Positions 110-7,758 of a stretch of 9,663 bases of DNA are shown here, in pieces. A program made the translations under genes and the position numbers. The stretch comes from Candidatus Hydrogenedentes bacterium CG07_land_8_20_14_0_80_42_17 (GTDB taxonomy: Bacteria; UBA8481): positions 1 through 9,663 of the forward strand of contig PEWQ01000199.1 of assembly GCA_002780065.1 (NCBI GenBank). Reading direction: 5' to 3'. The notes beneath the pieces are model-generated. The model searched no databases, was not told where the DNA came from, and was given only the letters and a program-made list of their open reading frames with translations. Every line of letters begins with the position of its first letter. The first letter of the stretch is position 1.

Positions 110-1954
110 ATGAATTACACTTCGTGTCGCCTAGTCTCTGCATTTAATTTTAGCAGATCATTTCTGATAATTCTTATGCTCCTCATTTCTTCATGCTACG
201 AGTCGAAAACAGTTGCACAAGATAAAGTTCAAATCTGCTCTGATAGCTCCTGCACTTCTTTAGCAATTTCAACAATGATCAAAGGCAATGAAGATCTTTC
301 TCTTCTCAATACTGCGCTCGATACTGCAGGCTTTATTCTATCGGATATCGCCATTCCAAAAGATAAACTCAATTGTTCTTCGCTGCATCCTCTAGTTTCG
401 GAATGCATGGATTCACCAATTGAATCAATCGGCAGAATCGAAATCTTCTCTGAAAAGTTGTTATCGTCATCTTCGCCTGAATCTGCTTTACAAACCATAT
501 TAGAAGCAATCTATCACGATTCGGAGCTCGAAACCTTTCACGAAACTTTTCTTGAAAGTTTGAATTCTAGTTTTAAAATTTTGAATTCCGTGCCGCAAGA
601 AAATTTTGCCGCGCCGCTTATTGAAGATGAAGAGAATTTAACTCTGCTTGAAGAGCACTATGCGGCTCCGAAAGTGCGGAGAGAAAGCAGACGCCTCGGT
701 GAAAAAGCCTTCTCAGTAAATATTGCGCGATTGCTGAAGAGTGCATTGAAAATTCTTCATGAAAATAATTACCATTTTTCCATTCCTATTTCCTGCCTAA
801 GAGACTTACCTATCGGAATCAAAGGAAATATTAAGTCTGCGATCAGAACAGAAATCGGATGGATTGTTATCGGCGGAGAAGATGAAAACGAGTATCCGCC
901 CGGACTTGCTGTAATCATTGATAAAGGCGGAAATGATATTTACACCGATCCGGCTAATGCCGATTCCGGAGTATCTATTGTCATTGATTTTGGGGGAGAC
1001 GATTTATATCGAGGAAAAATAGCGAGCTCAAAACGCGGCATTGCCATTCTGATCGATTACAATGGTAACGATCTGTATGAAGGAACCGAATTCACAGAGG
1101 CATTCTCTGATGGCGGAATAGCTCTGCTTTGGGATGAATCAGGTAATGACACATATTCCGGAAATATAGCTGGCGAAGCGTTTGCCGTTGCCGGAGTTTC
1201 TCTGCTGTTTGACAAGAGTGGAGACGATGAGTATCGAATCGGTTCATTCGGCCAAGCAGTAGCCGGTCCGAACGGAACAGCTATTTTGTGCGATGTCTCG
1301 GGAAACGACAGATATGTTGCGCTAGGAGGCTCAAGCGATGTAATACGAGATCCGTCTCAGAGACTTTCATTTTCTCAAGGATTCTCAACCGGACTCAGGC
1401 CCGGCTCTGCAGGCGGATTTGCTATGCTTGCTGATGGTGCCGGCAACGATATGTATCAAGCGTCGCTCTTTGCAGAAGGATGCGGCTACTGGGGAGCAGT
1501 CGGCGCATTGACAGATTTTTCCGGCGACGATATCTATCTTGCTCATCAGTATGCAGAAGGCAGTGGAGTCCATCTTGCAGTCGGTTATCTTATCGACGAA
1601 AATGGTTGCGATCAGTATCAATCTTTCAGCGTCTCGCAAGGTTGCGGCCACGATATTGCAGCAGGAATTCTCTTTGATAAAAGCGGCAATGATTTATACC
1701 GAGCAGACAATCTCTCACAGGCCGCGGGCAACGCAAACGGATTCGGATTTCTTTTCGACGAGGATGGAGACGACAATTATCTTCTTGATGGAAAGAGCCA
1801 GGGGCAGGGTTATGGCGTATATGAAGCAGAAACTCGAAGATACGGTTCGATCGGCATATTGCTCGATTCAAGAGGAAGAGATAATTACTCGATGAAGGGA
1901 AAAGATTCTTCTATCTGGATTCAAGGGGATGGCGGAGTTGGAATCGATCGATGA
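110..1954 (+). CDS. Exported lipoprotein with twelve DxxGxDxY repeats (beta-solenoid-like)
   Basis: Function unknown. The N-terminus looks like a lipoprotein signal: Arg7 and Arg16, a hydrophobic core at 18-26, and lipobox I-S-S-C with Cys29 as the probable lipidated residue. Residues 30-265 show no motif I recognise and are rich in Ser, Glu and Leu. From 271 to 593 there are twelve copies of a D-x-x-G-[NDCR]-D-x-Y motif, with the first Asp at 271, 293, 316, 342, 368, 395, 442, 469, 496, 523, 550 and 586. The commonest spacing is exactly 27, and many units also carry a [SA][QE]GxG box and a G-x-L-x-D strand. This looks like a stacked beta-solenoid. The motif resembles RTX calcium-binding repeats (GGxGxDxL) but occurs once per 27 residues instead of every nine. 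ATG 110 is the first start after an in-frame TAA at 101-103. The nearest purine-rich stretch (AGGGA, 84-88) lies rather far upstream, so the ribosome site is weak. It overlaps the next gene by ATGA. Confidence 0.85.
   Translation: MNYTSCRLVSAFNFSRSFLIILMLLISSCYESKTVAQDKVQICSDSSCTSLAISTMIKGNEDLSLLNTALDTAGFILSDIAIPKDKLNCSSLHPLVSECMDSPIESIGRIEIFSEKLLSSSSPESALQTILEAIYHDSELETFHETFLESLNSSFKILNSVPQENFAAPLIEDEENLTLLEEHYAAPKVRRESRRLGEKAFSVNIARLLKSALKILHENNYHFSIPISCLRDLPIGIKGNIKSAIRTEIGWIVIGGEDENEYPPGLAVIIDKGGNDIYTDPANADSGVSIVIDFGGDDLYRGKIASSKRGIAILIDYNGNDLYEGTEFTEAFSDGGIALLWDESGNDTYSGNIAGEAFAVAGVSLLFDKSGDDEYRIGSFGQAVAGPNGTAILCDVSGNDRYVALGGSSDVIRDPSQRLSFSQGFSTGLRPGSAGGFAMLADGAGNDMYQASLFAEGCGYWGAVGALTDFSGDDIYLAHQYAEGSGVHLAVGYLIDENGCDQYQSFSVSQGCGHDIAAGILFDKSGNDLYRADNLSQAAGNANGFGFLFDEDGDDNYLLDGKSQGQGYGVYEAETRRYGSIGILLDSRGRDNYSMKGKDSSIWIQGDGGVGIDR
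920..1888 (+). repeat. Coding repeat region: 12 DxxGxDxY units
   Basis: This part of the first gene encodes residues 271-593. Unit spacings in residues are 22, 23, 26, 26, 27, 47, 27, 27, 27, 27 and 36. The 47 and 36 values look like one 27-residue unit plus an insertion. Tyr is present in all twelve units and the second Asp in all twelve. The residue before that Asp is Asn or Asp in ten units, Cys in one (D496 unit) and Arg in the last (D586 unit). The DNA of the units has diverged while the protein motif is kept, which argues for an old, selected repeat and not a recent tandem expansion. Confidence 0.85.
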
Positions 1955-2649
1955 AAAAAAATATTTTCGCCGGAGGATTTTTTATTTTATTCGTTTCGAT
2001 TCTTCTTTTCGCAATGCCTGCAGAAGCGGCAGAGGAAGAGTTAAAAGACTCGGAAAAAATTTGGCAGAATGCGTTTCTCATTCTTTCGACAGGAAGTGCA
2101 GAGTATCGGGATTCATACAGCGAATCCGAAAAACTATTAGTTAACGGAGATTCAAAAGCATTAGAATTTATTGTAAAGTTTTTCGATCCTGAAATTCCCC
2201 GCGAGTGGTATTCGATTCAAAGAATTGCCGAAGTCGGCGGAGAGACATACTCCGACGCATTTTTGCATGCACTCTCAATTGCTGAAACAGATACGAAGCG
2301 GGTTCCAATTATCTTTGCGCTCGGTAAAACACAAAACAAAAAAGTAATAAACGCAATTCATTCCTATCAGTCGAACACCGACACCAGAATTCGTGCGGCT
2401 GTTGCCGCGGCTTATGGCGAGCTTGCGGCGCTCGAAGCAAAAACACCTCTTCTGCAATTAATTTCTGACTCTTCATTCGCCGTGAGAAGAATTGCTGTTG
2501 ATTCACTCGCTCGTATTCAGAAAAAATTTCCTTTAGAATTTTTCGATAGTGAGACTTTCGAGATAATCGAGCGTTTGCTGAACGATATTGATCCTTGGGT
2601 AAAAAGGAAAGCAATAATGCTTCATGAAATTATTTTATTAAACCAATAA
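1951..2649 (+). CDS. Exported HEAT-repeat protein
   Basis: The 232-aa product has a clear Sec signal peptide: Lys2-Lys3, a hydrophobic stretch at about 5-22, and AEA before the likely cut at 26/27. Residues 27-110 are helical and unassigned. From about 114 to 228 there are HEAT-like helix pairs, with hallmark segments near D144 (DTRIRAAVAAA), D173 (DSSFAVRRIAVDSL) and D212 (DIDPWVKRKAI). HEAT repeats form alpha-solenoids for protein binding, so a periplasmic scaffold or adaptor role is inferred; no catalytic motif is visible. Its ATG shares ATGA with the stop of the preceding gene, with GGAG at 1934-1937, so the two are probably translationally coupled and may act together. Its last six codons and stop overlap, on the opposite strand, the tail of a decayed hicA gene, so the present C-terminus may not be ancestral. 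Confidence 0.85.
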   Translation: MKKNIFAGGFFILFVSILLFAMPAEAAEEELKDSEKIWQNAFLILSTGSAEYRDSYSESEKLLVNGDSKALEFIVKFFDPEIPREWYSIQRIAEVGGETYSDAFLHALSIAETDTKRVPIIFALGKTQNKKVINAIHSYQSNTDTRIRAAVAAAYGELAALEAKTPLLQLISDSSFAVRRIAVDSLARIQKKFPLEFFDSETFEIIERLLNDIDPWVKRKAIMLHEIILLNQ

Positions 2650-2981: not shown

Positions 2982-3005
2982 CTAAAATGACAGTATACTG
3001 AATTG

Positions 3006-3010
3006 AAGGT
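3006..3010 (+). promoter_or_regulatory. Ribosome binding site that fixes the start at ATG 3018
   Basis: AAGG at 3006-3009 lies 8 nt before ATG 3018. The longest open frame begins with TTG at 3003, which overlaps this site and has no site of its own, so ATG 3018 is preferred. Confidence 0.6.
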
Positions 3011-3017
3011 GAAGAAG

Positions 3018-3983
3018 ATGTATGGAATTAAACTAATAAATTTACCGAATAACCGAATGCCTGAACACATAATAGCATTTTCTCTTCTATTTTTCTTTTT
3101 AGTTCCGGCTTTTGCCGAAACTGCGAATGCGAATAGTTCTCGACCAGACACCTTTATCGAGGTTGCTCCATCTATCCGCACCGATACAACCTCTCAAAGA
3201 ACTCGCAGCCGCCAAACTGCTCCTATTCTTAGCGTGAACCCTGTTCTGCGCGGTCCTGCGATTGACACCGTTCCTCCTCACTCAACACCTGTCCGTGAAA
3301 CAGCAATTCGCTCTGCAATATCGGATACAAAACCCGCAGTTCCTGAAGAAAAGATTAATGCAATCACAACACCAACACCGAGAATAAGAATTGAATCGCC
3401 GAAATCAGAAAGCGATACAAGTTCATATTTGAGAACTGCTGTCATGGTAGAAGTTCCTGAGATAAAAACTCCGTCTGTAATGGTTCTTCGATTCGAGTTG
3501 GAAACAACTACGGTTCAATCCGACGTTCCATTTCCAATTCGTTTAAGGGTGCTGGACGAAAACGGTTTTCCTGCCGCGGAATACTCAGAACCGATATGGT
3601 ATGAATCTTTATTTGGAGTAATACCTGTTGTTTCGAGTTCAAAATGGCAATCAGGCATGTTCGAAGACACCGTTCTTATTCGTCGTCCTGGAAAAAATGT
3701 CATGCTCATCGCTACATCCGGCCGCGCCTCAGGCTCTATAGTTCTCGAAGTGAAGCCTCCACAACCCGACAGTTCCACTTGGCTCGCTTTAGCCGAAACT
3801 AAACTCACCGAAGGTAAATTCGACGACGCAGTTTATTACTTCAAACTTGCATCTTCTCTTACTCCTCAAGGCGATCCTCAAATCGAAGAGCGCCTCGCAA
3901 AATTATATCTTTCGCGCGGCGAATGGAATAAGGCTCAAGAACATTATCAAAAAGCGTTGCGCGCAATTGCCGGCTCGAAATAA
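3018..3983 (+). CDS. Exported Ig-like/TPR protein
   Basis: The product is 321 aa from ATG 3018 (326 if TTG 3003 is used). A signal peptide has its hydrophobic core at about 17-32 and AFA before Glu at the likely cut; its n-region is unusually long (about 16 residues). Residues 35-150 are a low-complexity linker rich in Thr, Pro, Ser and Arg, as in spacers of secreted proteins. Residues 154-246 look like a beta-sandwich (Ig-like or Big-type): alternating hydrophobic strands ending in IVLEVK. Residues 254-318 hold two TPR-like helix pairs (WLALAETKLTEGKFDDAVYY; LAKLYLSRGEWNKAQEHYQK). TPRs bind partner proteins, so a periplasmic adaptor is inferred; there is no enzyme motif. The stop lies only 4 nt before the patatin gene, so the two are probably co-transcribed, from the sigma-54-like site upstream. 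I do not recognise a named family. Confidence 0.8.
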   Translation: MYGIKLINLPNNRMPEHIIAFSLLFFFLVPAFAETANANSSRPDTFIEVAPSIRTDTTSQRTRSRQTAPILSVNPVLRGPAIDTVPPHSTPVRETAIRSAISDTKPAVPEEKINAITTPTPRIRIESPKSESDTSSYLRTAVMVEVPEIKTPSVMVLRFELETTTVQSDVPFPIRLRVLDENGFPAAEYSEPIWYESLFGVIPVVSSSKWQSGMFEDTVLIRRPGKNVMLIATSGRASGSIVLEVKPPQPDSSTWLALAETKLTEGKFDDAVYYFKLASSLTPQGDPQIEERLAKLYLSRGEWNKAQEHYQKALRAIAGSK

Positions 3984-5350: not shown

Positions 5351-5377
5351 ACGTCATGGAGGCACAGGCGCTACGCG
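5351..5377. repeat. Fragment of the intergenic repeat, copy A
   Basis: The 19-mer ACGTCATGGAGGCACAGGC at 5351-5369 recurs exactly at 5520-5538. Positions 5358-5377 also match the reverse complement of 5613-5632 at 18 of 20 bases. The fragment therefore starts like either end of the full element and continues like its right end in inverted orientation. It begins two bases after the patatin stop codon. Confidence 0.8.
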
Positions 5378-5380
5378 CGT

Positions 5381-5519
5381 ATGAGAAAAAATATCATTTT
5401 GTTGAAAGCACTCTTGTGGAACGAGGTAAAATAATTGAAAAATGAAAATTGGAAAAATAAAATTTTCAATTTGCACTTTCCAATTTGCACTTTCAAATAT
5501 AATAACATTGCAATGAGAA
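5381..5519. repeat. AT-rich linker with hairpin and 14-bp tandem repeat
   Basis: Between the two GC-rich repeat copies lies an AT-rich stretch with no credible gene. TGAAAATT (5443-5450) and AATTTTCA (5461-5468) form an 8-bp inverted repeat around a 10-nt loop. CAATTTGCACTTTC is then repeated twice head to tail at 5467-5480 and 5481-5494. ATGAGAAA occurs near both ends (5381-5388 and 5513-5520). Confidence 0.75.
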
Positions 5520-5632
5520 ACGTCATGGAGGCACAGGCACCCTTGCGTCAATGGACGCCACGCCTGTACAAGCGACGCATGCTTATCCAGCACGTGCGAG
5601 GGCGTCCAGAGACGCGTAGCGCACGTGCCTCC
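5520..5632. repeat. GC-rich twin-hairpin intergenic element, copy B
   Basis: The element is bounded by GGAGGCAC (5527-5534) and its inverse GTGCCTCC (5625-5632). Inside are two hairpins of the same design. Hairpin 1 has ACAGGC/GCCTGT (5533-5538 with 5562-5567) around GCGTC-AATG-GACGC (5545-5558). Hairpin 2 has a 9-bp stem GCACGTGCG/CGCACGTGC (5590-5598 with 5620-5628) around GCGTC-CAGA-GACGC (5602-5615). An alternative pairing joins TGGACGCC (5552-5559) with GGCGTCCA (5601-5608). About 64% of 5521-5630 is G or C, far above the flanks. It resembles a REP/BIME or small MITE-like repeat; a structured RNA leader for the next gene is the alternative. Confidence 0.75.
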
Positions 5633-5658
5633 TATTCCTCATTCGGTCGAGTGATGCA

Positions 5659-7758
5659 ATGAATTTAATTGCGGCAATAATAATTTTAGTCGTGTCGAGC
5701 ACAAATTCTTATGCGAGTTCAGAATCCGATACTTATTTTTTGCAAGGACTTTTAGCAATGAATAGCAATAAAATTGTCTTAGCAGAAAAATATTTCGACT
5801 CAGCCGCTGTAATGTCCGATTCTTCCGAATGGATTCAGTTATTCCAGGCAAAAATATATCTTGCAAAGAGCGATACCGAACGCGCAAAGGCTTTGCTCGA
5901 CGAATTATCCGTAAAAGGAAATTCCCGCATCAGCTTTGATGCCGCAATGTTTAGAGCGGAAATCGTTACGGAATCCGAAACCGCATATAGTTCTATGAAA
6001 TCCTTGCTCTCATTCATTGACGATTCCATTTACGGAGCTGAAGCGGCATACCTATGCGGTGAGATTCTTATCAAAAGCGGAGATACCGAAAGCGCACTGA
6101 AAATATGGACTGAGCTATCAATGCTCTTTCCAAAATCGGAAGAGGCATATAAATCCGTTCTAAAAATATCGGAGCTATCGGAATCTCTGAACTCTTTCGA
6201 GCCTTATTTACTTTATCGAATGGCAAAATGCGCGTTCGAACACGGAGATGCTCAAACAGCTTCAATGCTCTTGAAACCGCTTACACGCCGCAGAGTCGAC
6301 AGACGTTTGAGAGACGACATACTGCTTCTTCAGGCAGAGGCTGACTTCAAACTCAGTTCATATCGAGAAGCATTTGAATCGTACCGCGACGCGGCGTCGG
6401 TTACTCAAAATCTTTTGAAAAGGGAAAAAGCGGAATTGGGATTAATTCTATGCAAACTCTATATCGGCGATTCCGAATCCAGAGCGGCCGCACTTAAAAC
6501 AATTAAGCAAAGTAAACTCGAAGACAGGCTGGCGGACACAATTGCAATGCTTGCGAGTTTAATGAGATGCAGAGGAGACAGTGAAACCTATTCTGATTTA
6601 ATGCAGGTTATTTCGACGCCGACCTTTGAAAGCTTTATCCATGAATACCATCGCGCAGTGTCAGATAGCTCGCTCGCCATAAACTGGAGAACTGCTCTGG
6701 ATGTTGCGGAGCGAATCGAGGACTCTTTCGATAAGGCGCTTGCATCGGCATTGCTGGCTGAAAACTCTCCTCTTTCTGCCGCAGATTTATGGCGTCAGAC
6801 AATAAGTCTTGGCGCCAGCAATTATTTAATTCTGCTCGCTGAAGATAATATTACCAAAAAAAATGATTCGAATCGCGCTACGCTCGAAGCGGATGCTCTT
6901 TTAAATGCTGCTCTGCGTGAATTCAATCTCGGAAGAATAAATTCAGCTTTTAGTTTATTCAGAGTCTTGCGGTTGAGTTATCCCGGTACTGTTGCAAGTT
7001 TTGAAAGCGAAAAAATCTCAAGAAAAATTATCGAGCCGTATTTCAGAATTGATTCGAAATTAAACAGAGATTTACAGACCGCACAGATTTTAATTGAAGG
7101 AAAAGCTTTTCAGGAAGCAATCAATATTCTCAAAGGCAGGTATGATCCTGCGTCAGTAATGCTTCGCATCGATGCTTACGAAAAAAGCGGATTATTTCAT
7201 AAATCAATACGAGAAGCTGAAGATTTCATAAATAACATCTCTATGAATATCACTCTTTTCGATATTCCTGAAACTTTTCTGATTCATCTCTTTCCGATTC
7301 CTTACAAAGAACTATTCAGGCAATGCGGTGAGTCATACGGCATCGACCCTGCGCTTCTGGCATCGATTGCGCGCATACAAACAAGATTCGATCCTTATTT
7401 TCAATCAGGTTACAGAGTTGGAATTGCCGGAGTCGATGTCGATGCAACTACCTTTGCAAAAAATTTCATAGACGCACCGAAGCTTGAGCCTTTTGAACTG
7501 CTGATTCCTTCAAAAGCTGTTGCTCTGCAAGCATGGCTTCTCAAAAATCTAAAATCTGCTGTCAATGATTCTGCACCTTATAAAATTGCGAGCGCATATT
7601 ATTCAGGACCGGCAAATTTGCCGAATATCGTCAATTGCAAAAATGAGCTCGAATGGATCTCATCTCTGCCCTTTAAAAGTGCTCGTGTATTTGCATTGGA
7701 TTTTCAATATGCTTACTCAATATACAAAAAATATTTTCAGGTAAACCGTGCGAGATGA
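5659..7758 (+). CDS. Exported TPR protein with degenerate lytic-transglycosylase (SLT-like) domain
   Basis: The 699-aa product has a hydrophobic signal segment at 3-14 with SYA before the likely cut at 19/20, though its n-region lacks Lys/Arg. Residues 22-540 are a long run of TPR-like helix pairs (first near 24-58), as in the alpha-superhelix of Slt70-type enzymes. Residues 545-695 follow the SLT layout: PIPYKELF..C.ESYGIDPAL, then ARIQTRFDP, VGIAGVD, AYYSGPANL, and a closing WISSLPFKSAR..A..Y.YSIYKKYF. Soluble lytic transglycosylases cut peptidoglycan using a Glu in the ES motif. Here that position is Gln574-Thr575, and the GLMQ motif is GIAGVD (588-593), so it is probably inactive and may bind the wall instead. 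ATG 5659 is the first start after an in-frame TAG at 5617-5619. No ribosome site is seen, and the GC-rich repeat element ends 26 nt upstream. The next gene starts 1 nt after its stop. Confidence 0.82.
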   Translation: MNLIAAIIILVVSSTNSYASSESDTYFLQGLLAMNSNKIVLAEKYFDSAAVMSDSSEWIQLFQAKIYLAKSDTERAKALLDELSVKGNSRISFDAAMFRAEIVTESETAYSSMKSLLSFIDDSIYGAEAAYLCGEILIKSGDTESALKIWTELSMLFPKSEEAYKSVLKISELSESLNSFEPYLLYRMAKCAFEHGDAQTASMLLKPLTRRRVDRRLRDDILLLQAEADFKLSSYREAFESYRDAASVTQNLLKREKAELGLILCKLYIGDSESRAAALKTIKQSKLEDRLADTIAMLASLMRCRGDSETYSDLMQVISTPTFESFIHEYHRAVSDSSLAINWRTALDVAERIEDSFDKALASALLAENSPLSAADLWRQTISLGASNYLILLAEDNITKKNDSNRATLEADALLNAALREFNLGRINSAFSLFRVLRLSYPGTVASFESEKISRKIIEPYFRIDSKLNRDLQTAQILIEGKAFQEAINILKGRYDPASVMLRIDAYEKSGLFHKSIREAEDFINNISMNITLFDIPETFLIHLFPIPYKELFRQCGESYGIDPALLASIARIQTRFDPYFQSGYRVGIAGVDVDATTFAKNFIDAPKLEPFELLIPSKAVALQAWLLKNLKSAVNDSAPYKIASAYYSGPANLPNIVNCKNELEWISSLPFKSARVFALDFQYAYSIYKKYFQVNRAR

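What the first reader, a model, noticed from the sequence alone, without database searches (positions are those of the whole stretch)
7291..7746. SLT-like domain with the catalytic Glu replaced by Gln
The C-terminal domain keeps the lytic-transglycosylase order of motifs (YGIDPAL, R-I-x-x-R-F-D-P, AYYSGP, the closing Tyr-rich helix), but the catalytic ES is Gln574-Thr575 and GLMQ is GIAGVD. The frame is intact and the fold motifs are kept, so this looks like a retained non-catalytic peptidoglycan-binding or scaffold protein, not a dying gene.
Basis: partly seen in the sequence, partly recalled or inferred. Interest (0 to 1): 0.7.

Follow-up and report, generated by a model that had tools for sequence, protein, structure and literature searches.

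The report
Retained but inactivated cell-wall-cutting enzyme relative
This gene encodes a secreted relative of a bacterial cell-wall-cutting enzyme (a soluble lytic transglycosylase) whose fold is kept but whose active site has been dismantled; its only known counterpart, in a distant relative, shows a similar but not identical loss, so it probably works as a structural or regulatory protein rather than as an enzyme.

Summary
ORF 5659-7758 (699 aa: probable signal peptide, TPR superhelix, C-terminal SLT domain) passes Pfam's SLT cut-off, and Gln574 sits exactly at the catalytic Glu of Slt70 (E478); 27 of 27 comparison domains have Glu there. GLMQ (now GIAG), the Asn of AYN and the Glu-Thr of the closing ETR motif are also gone. 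The domain model (pLDDT 87) matches Slt structures at Z up to 20. However, it too lacks GLMQ, the Asn and the closing Glu, and has lost the Tyr that the window protein keeps; the two share non-canonical residues such as Arg586 and Asp593. So Gln574 is not the conserved feature: the cleft was probably dismantled before the split, and different leftovers were lost afterwards. Four ordinary SLT genes remain in each genome. Best reading: a non-catalytic Slt paralog acting as periplasmic scaffold or regulator beside a patatin and a TMEM260-like membrane protein. Non-catalysis is well supported, by sequence and modelling only; the scaffold role is inferred; peptidoglycan binding is unproven.

The parts
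5659..7758 (+). CDS of the Slt-like protein, 699 aa
   Evidence: open frame; ortholog L024:3537-5792 found by two searches
5659..5718 (+). probable signal peptide (residues 1-20, MNLIAAIIILVVSSTNSYAS)
   Evidence: read by eye: hydrophobic stretch plus AxA-like site; the ortholog also begins with a hydrophobic leader; not tested with a predictor
5722..7218 (+). TPR / alpha-superhelix region, about residues 22-520
   Evidence: Pfam TPR_19 and ANAPC3 over cut-off; model pLDDT mostly 70-88 to about residue 280, lower after; Foldseek hits are TPR superhelices
7267..7755 (+). SLT-like domain, residues 537-699
   Evidence: Pfam PF01464 over cut-off; Slt profile 53 bits; domain model pLDDT 87.3, pTM 0.83; Slt structures at Z 15-20
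7378..7380 (+). Gln574 codon, at the catalytic Glu position (Slt70 E478)
   Evidence: E in 27/27 comparison domains and in the ortholog
7420..7437 (+). GIAGVD 588-593 in place of GLMQIM; Asp593 shared with the ortholog
7594..7611 (+). AYYSGP 646-651; Tyr647 kept (Slt70 Y552), Asn replaced by Tyr648
7678..7686 (+). Ser674-Ala675-Arg676 in place of the closing Glu-Thr-Arg
   Evidence: the ortholog has KAR
3003..3983 (+). neighbour: TPR-containing secreted protein, first gene of the conserved cluster
   Evidence: ORF; ortholog L024:494-2014, 32% identity
3988..5349 (+). neighbour: patatin-like phospholipase (probable start MKKILIAALIS)
   Evidence: Pfam Patatin E 1.8e-31; start position; ortholog L024:2011-3531, 42% identity
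7760..9577 (+). neighbour: TMEM260-like multi-span membrane protein; an alternative GTG start at 7748 overlaps the Slt-like gene
   Evidence: Pfam TMEM260-like E 4.1e-16; the first ATG of the ortholog's frame overlaps its Slt-like gene; 38% identity

Best explanation
An exported, non-catalytic paralog of soluble lytic transglycosylase (Slt). The active site was dismantled in an ancestor of the window's lineage and of J006 (loss of GLMQ, of the AYN Asn and of the closing ETR Glu/Thr); later the window lineage changed Glu574 to Gln and the J006 lineage lost the AYN Ala-Tyr. Shown by sequence and model: SLT fold, loss of catalytic residues, retention in a conserved gene order. Inferred: no cleavage activity; a job as periplasmic scaffold or regulator in which the TPR superhelix and the SLT-shaped domain hold protein partners (peptidoglycan enzymes such as the active-looking Slt encoded in the same genome, or the patatin and TMEM260-like proteins next door), possibly while still touching glycan.
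For: SLT membership by Pfam, Slt profile and fold. Catalytic column Q against E in 27/27; GLMQ Gln, AYN Asn and closing Glu absent in both orthologs but invariant in the panel. Of 31 strongly conserved columns 17 are changed in both orthologs; nine residues are identical in both and never seen in the panel, so the altered state is likely shared and inherited. The same Glu-to-Gln change is what crystallographers use as an inactive mutant: Slt E503Q (6fcq, 6fc4), MltE E64Q (6ghy, 4hjy), by entry titles. Gene order TPR protein, patatin, Slt-like, TMEM260-like is kept, with short or overlapping junctions in J006. Each genome has four further SLT genes with good scores, so the housekeeping activity is covered. 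Precedent for inactive wall-enzyme folds as regulators: DipM (PMC10336132), PrgK LytM (PMC11323569); for an LT modulating a partner: LtgA with Ape1 (PMC7083599).
Against: No biochemical data. Only one ortholog is available, at 24% identity, so selection strength cannot be measured; the gene diverges faster than its neighbours (32-42%) and than the active Slt C domain (50%), which fits relaxed constraint too. The ortholog keeps Glu-Ser. The J006 domain scores only 12 bits on the Slt profile, has no SLT hit in Pfam and none in the PDB. No partner has been identified. The domain model used 23 SLT sequences in its alignment, so its fold is partly imposed.
Confidence: 0.6

Rival explanations
1. A glycan-binding protein: the SLT cleft still holds peptidoglycan or free glycan strands without cutting them, as Glu-to-Gln mutants of active LTs do, and the TPR part recruits other proteins.
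For: Q574 mimics mutants that were crystallised with ligands (6fcq with bulgecin, 4hjy with chitopentaose). Tyr647, equivalent to Slt70 Tyr552, and the fold are kept.
Against: The Gln of GLMQ, the Asn of AYN and the closing Glu, which usually line the sugar cleft, are lost in both orthologs, and J006 has also lost the Tyr. Binding was not testable here.
Confidence: 0.22
2. A gene under relaxed constraint on its way out, with no remaining function that selection maintains.
For: Fastest-diverging member of its cluster, 24% identity against 32-42% for the neighbours and 50% for the active Slt C domain; the two orthologs lost different catalytic residues.
Against: Uninterrupted frames of 699 and 751 aa in two families of one order; normal codon-position composition; probable signal peptide, TPR part and gene order kept; shared new residues.
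Confidence: 0.12
3. An active but altered glycosidase using a displaced acid, for instance Asp593, which both orthologs place at the Slt70 Met498 column.
For: Asp593 is identical in both orthologs and never seen in 27 comparison domains. Goose-type lysozyme has an Asp just after its GLMQ motif (own knowledge). The SLT domain of PrgK turned out to be a muramidase (PMC11323569), so SLT chemistry can drift.
Against: Enzymes of this fold known to work keep the catalytic Glu; the window protein does not. Most of the cleft is changed.
Confidence: 0.06

Closest known systems
E. coli Slt70 / P. aeruginosa Slt (soluble lytic transglycosylase, GH23, PF01464)
   Same: Helical N-terminal superhelix followed by an SLT domain; Z 15.2-20.0 over 163-166 residues for Slt and Slt70 rows; Slt70 is the best PDB sequence match
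   Different: Catalytic Glu, GLMQ, AYN Asn and closing ETR Glu replaced; no sequence match to the N-terminal part of Slt70 was found
The canonical Slt of the same genome (G000 contig 186, 773 aa)
   Same: Same architecture, TPR then SLT; weakly similar over both parts
   Different: Keeps EES, GLMQ, YNAGP and ETR; its C domain is 50% identical to its J006 ortholog
DipM and other inactive LytM-domain regulators; LytM domain of PrgK
   Same: A degenerate peptidoglycan-hydrolase fold retained to regulate active enzymes (PMC10336132, PMC11323569)
   Different: LytM metallopeptidase fold, unrelated to SLT; a regulatory role is shown for those, only inferred here
LtgA of Neisseria
   Same: A full-length Slt-type protein that also modulates a partner, Ape1 (PMC7083599)
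   Different: LtgA is described as an LT with a working active site

Membership tests
SLT domain family (Pfam PF01464, GH23-like fold) | sequence profile over the curated cut-off | tested here: met
   23.8 bits, cut-off 21.3; 24.5 bits in the genome search
SLT domain family (Pfam PF01464, GH23-like fold) | lysozyme-like SLT fold | tested here: met
   model pLDDT 87.3; P. aeruginosa Slt Z 20.0, rmsd 2.5, 164 aligned; caveat: the alignment contained SLT sequences
Active lytic transglycosylase (Slt type) | catalytic Glu followed by Ser/Thr | tested here: not met
   Gln574-Thr575; E in 27/27 comparison domains; the ortholog has Glu-Ser
Active lytic transglycosylase (Slt type) | GLMQ motif | tested here: not met
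   GIAG here, GIGA in the ortholog
Active lytic transglycosylase (Slt type) | AYNxG motif | tested here: not met
   Ala and Tyr kept, Asn replaced by Tyr648; the ortholog has VKI at A-Y-N
Active lytic transglycosylase (Slt type) | closing ETR motif | tested here: not met
   SAR here, KAR in the ortholog
Active lytic transglycosylase (Slt type) | release of 1,6-anhydro-muropeptides | not testable with these tools
   needs biochemistry
Non-catalytic regulator of wall enzymes (DipM-like by function) | binds and changes the activity of a peptidoglycan enzyme | not testable with these tools
   no interaction data

The most novel reading that the evidence does not exclude
A family of pseudo-lytic-transglycosylases, inactive since before the split of two families of a poorly sampled bacterial phylum, forming one membrane-periplasm module with a patatin and a TMEM260-like glycosyltransferase-type protein, the SLT-shaped domain serving as a docking platform.
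Probability: 0.3. Interest if true: 0.6.

Novelty: new variant of a known kind. Interest (0 to 1): 0.42.

Why it matters
Inactive relatives of wall-cutting enzymes are known regulators for the LytM fold; the open-access papers searched gave no described inactive Slt-type lytic transglycosylase (only one paper, on another subject, holds both 'lytic transglycosylase' and 'pseudoenzyme'). A naturally inactive Slt kept in an operon would give a test of whether the LT fold itself can be a scaffold, separate from cutting, a question raised by the LtgA work. It also warns that annotation by Pfam hit alone would call this protein a transglycosylase.

Tried and rejected
E558 as the active-site acid: rejected, 16 residues before the catalytic column. 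Full-length structure with two sequences: C-terminal part unusable (pLDDT about 30), so the domain was folded with more SLT sequences. More orthologs: none found among 386 genomes beyond J006 (next best 41 bits against 1400), nor in viral contigs; a genome-collection scan with the neighbouring TMEM260-like protein returned only J006. TPR-only hits (BamD, YbgF, FlcA models) lie far under their cut-offs and were not taken as family assignments. The J006 'Q' at the GLMQ column is an alignment slip (VDQ shifted); realignment gives Ala. A sequencing error at Gln574 alone (CAA is one base from a Glu codon) cannot be excluded in a draft genome, but would not restore the other motifs. A named taxonomy for the window was not obtained; only its relation to J006 (same order, different family) is known, and J006's database name may not match its placement, since only two genomes of the phylum are held.

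Full report
Observation. The window holds one 699-aa frame at 5659-7758. Pfam finds TPR repeats and, at residues 552-656, the SLT domain with 23.8 bits against a cut-off of 21.3. The best solved-structure match by sequence is E. coli Slt70; in that alignment Gln574 faces the catalytic Glu with no gap between the start of the domain and the catalytic residue.

Chance or real. A domain model made with 25 aligned sequences reached pLDDT 87.3 and pTM 0.83. The top structural matches are Slt of Pseudomonas (6fbt, Z 20.0, rmsd 2.5, 164 aligned), 5o2n 'Lytic transglycosylase in action' (Z 19.4, rmsd 2.9, 163 aligned) and Slt70 (1sly, Z 18.8, rmsd 3.0, 166 aligned), covering essentially the whole domain. 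The fold is partly imposed by the SLT sequences in the alignment, but the Pfam and profile hits, which are independent of the model, agree.

Which catalytic residues are gone. In 27 distinct comparison domains the catalytic Glu, the Gln of GLMQ, and the Tyr and Asn of AYN are invariant; the closing Glu-Thr is invariant after realignment. The window protein lacks the Glu, the GLMQ Gln, the Asn and the closing Glu-Thr, and keeps the Tyr. A published description of Slt70 names the Glu, the following Ser, GLMQ and AYNxG as active-site elements (PMC550655). Several crystal entries matched by the model are titled inactive mutants with the same Glu-to-Gln change, Slt E503Q (6fcq Z 19.4, 6fc4 Z 15.2) and MltE E64Q (6ghy Z 16.1).

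The ortholog. A search of relatives found one full-length counterpart in genome G001, same order but another family. Gene order is the same: TPR protein, patatin, Slt-like protein, TMEM260-like protein. In J006 the residue at 574 is Glu, followed by Ser. But J006 has GIGA for GLMQ, VKI for AYN and KAR for ETR, and Pfam does not recognise its domain. Of 31 strongly conserved SLT columns, 12 are kept by the window protein, 11 by J006, and 17 are lost by both. Nine residues are identical in the two and never seen in the panel, including Arg586, Asp593 and Ala675. The simplest account is an active site dismantled before the split, then different leftovers lost in each line; Gln574 is one of the later changes. 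This history rests on two sequences.

Is the gene maintained? Both frames are uninterrupted; both proteins start with a probable signal peptide, read by eye; the N-terminal part is predicted as a TPR superhelix. The Slt-like pair is 24% identical, its SLT domain about 26%, against 32-42% for the neighbours and 50% for the C domain of the canonical Slt pair. So the protein evolves fast, yet has not been lost. dN/dS could not be computed at this distance.

Other SLT genes. The window's genome has four further SLT genes at 104-120 bits, J006 four at 102-106. One is a TPR-SLT protein of 773 aa with all motifs intact. The Slt-like protein is thus an extra member, not the cell's only Slt.

Mechanism. 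Most likely it does not cut; it serves as a periplasmic scaffold or regulator. Shown: fold, lost residues, conserved context. Inferred: inactivity, partners, role. Precedents for the principle are DipM and the LytM domain of PrgK and the partner-modulating LtgA. A glycan-binding role is the main rival; it is suggested by Gln574 and Tyr647 but weakened by loss of other cleft residues. A displaced acid at Asp593 is the least likely but most interesting enzymatic rival; that the Met498 column of Slt70 lines the cleft is from my own knowledge of the structure, not tested here.

Novelty. No inactive Slt-type lytic transglycosylase was found in the open-access papers searched; this search is limited. 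It is a new variant of a known kind: a pseudoenzyme of the Slt family in a lineage with two sampled genomes.

Noticed in passing
window 5351-5658: The gap between patatin and the Slt-like gene is a high-copy interspersed repeat: 70 matches, mostly partial, in the 2.4 Mb genome, many at contig ends; the 17-mer GTCATGGAGGCACAGGC occurs 22 times, its reversed control 0 times. In J006 the same junction is 5 bases, so the repeat appears to have been inserted into an operon.
   Followed up: partly
window 110-1954: 614-aa protein with about a dozen repeats of the type (S/G)G(N/D)D-x-Y, spaced 27 residues in places; no Pfam or NCBIfam family over cut-off.
   Followed up: no
window 1951-2649: HEAT-repeat protein with a hydrophobic leader whose start overlaps the stop of the repeat protein before it; Pfam HEAT_2 E 8.3e-14.
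   Followed up: no
L024 8094-9152: In J006 the conserved cluster is followed by a recA-like gene; the window ends before this point, so it is unknown whether the order continues.
   Followed up: no
L002 1294-3615: The canonical Slt of the window's genome scores 199 bits on the NCBIfam model for BB0259-type flagellar assembly lytic transglycosylase, under its cut-off of 234.
   Followed up: no
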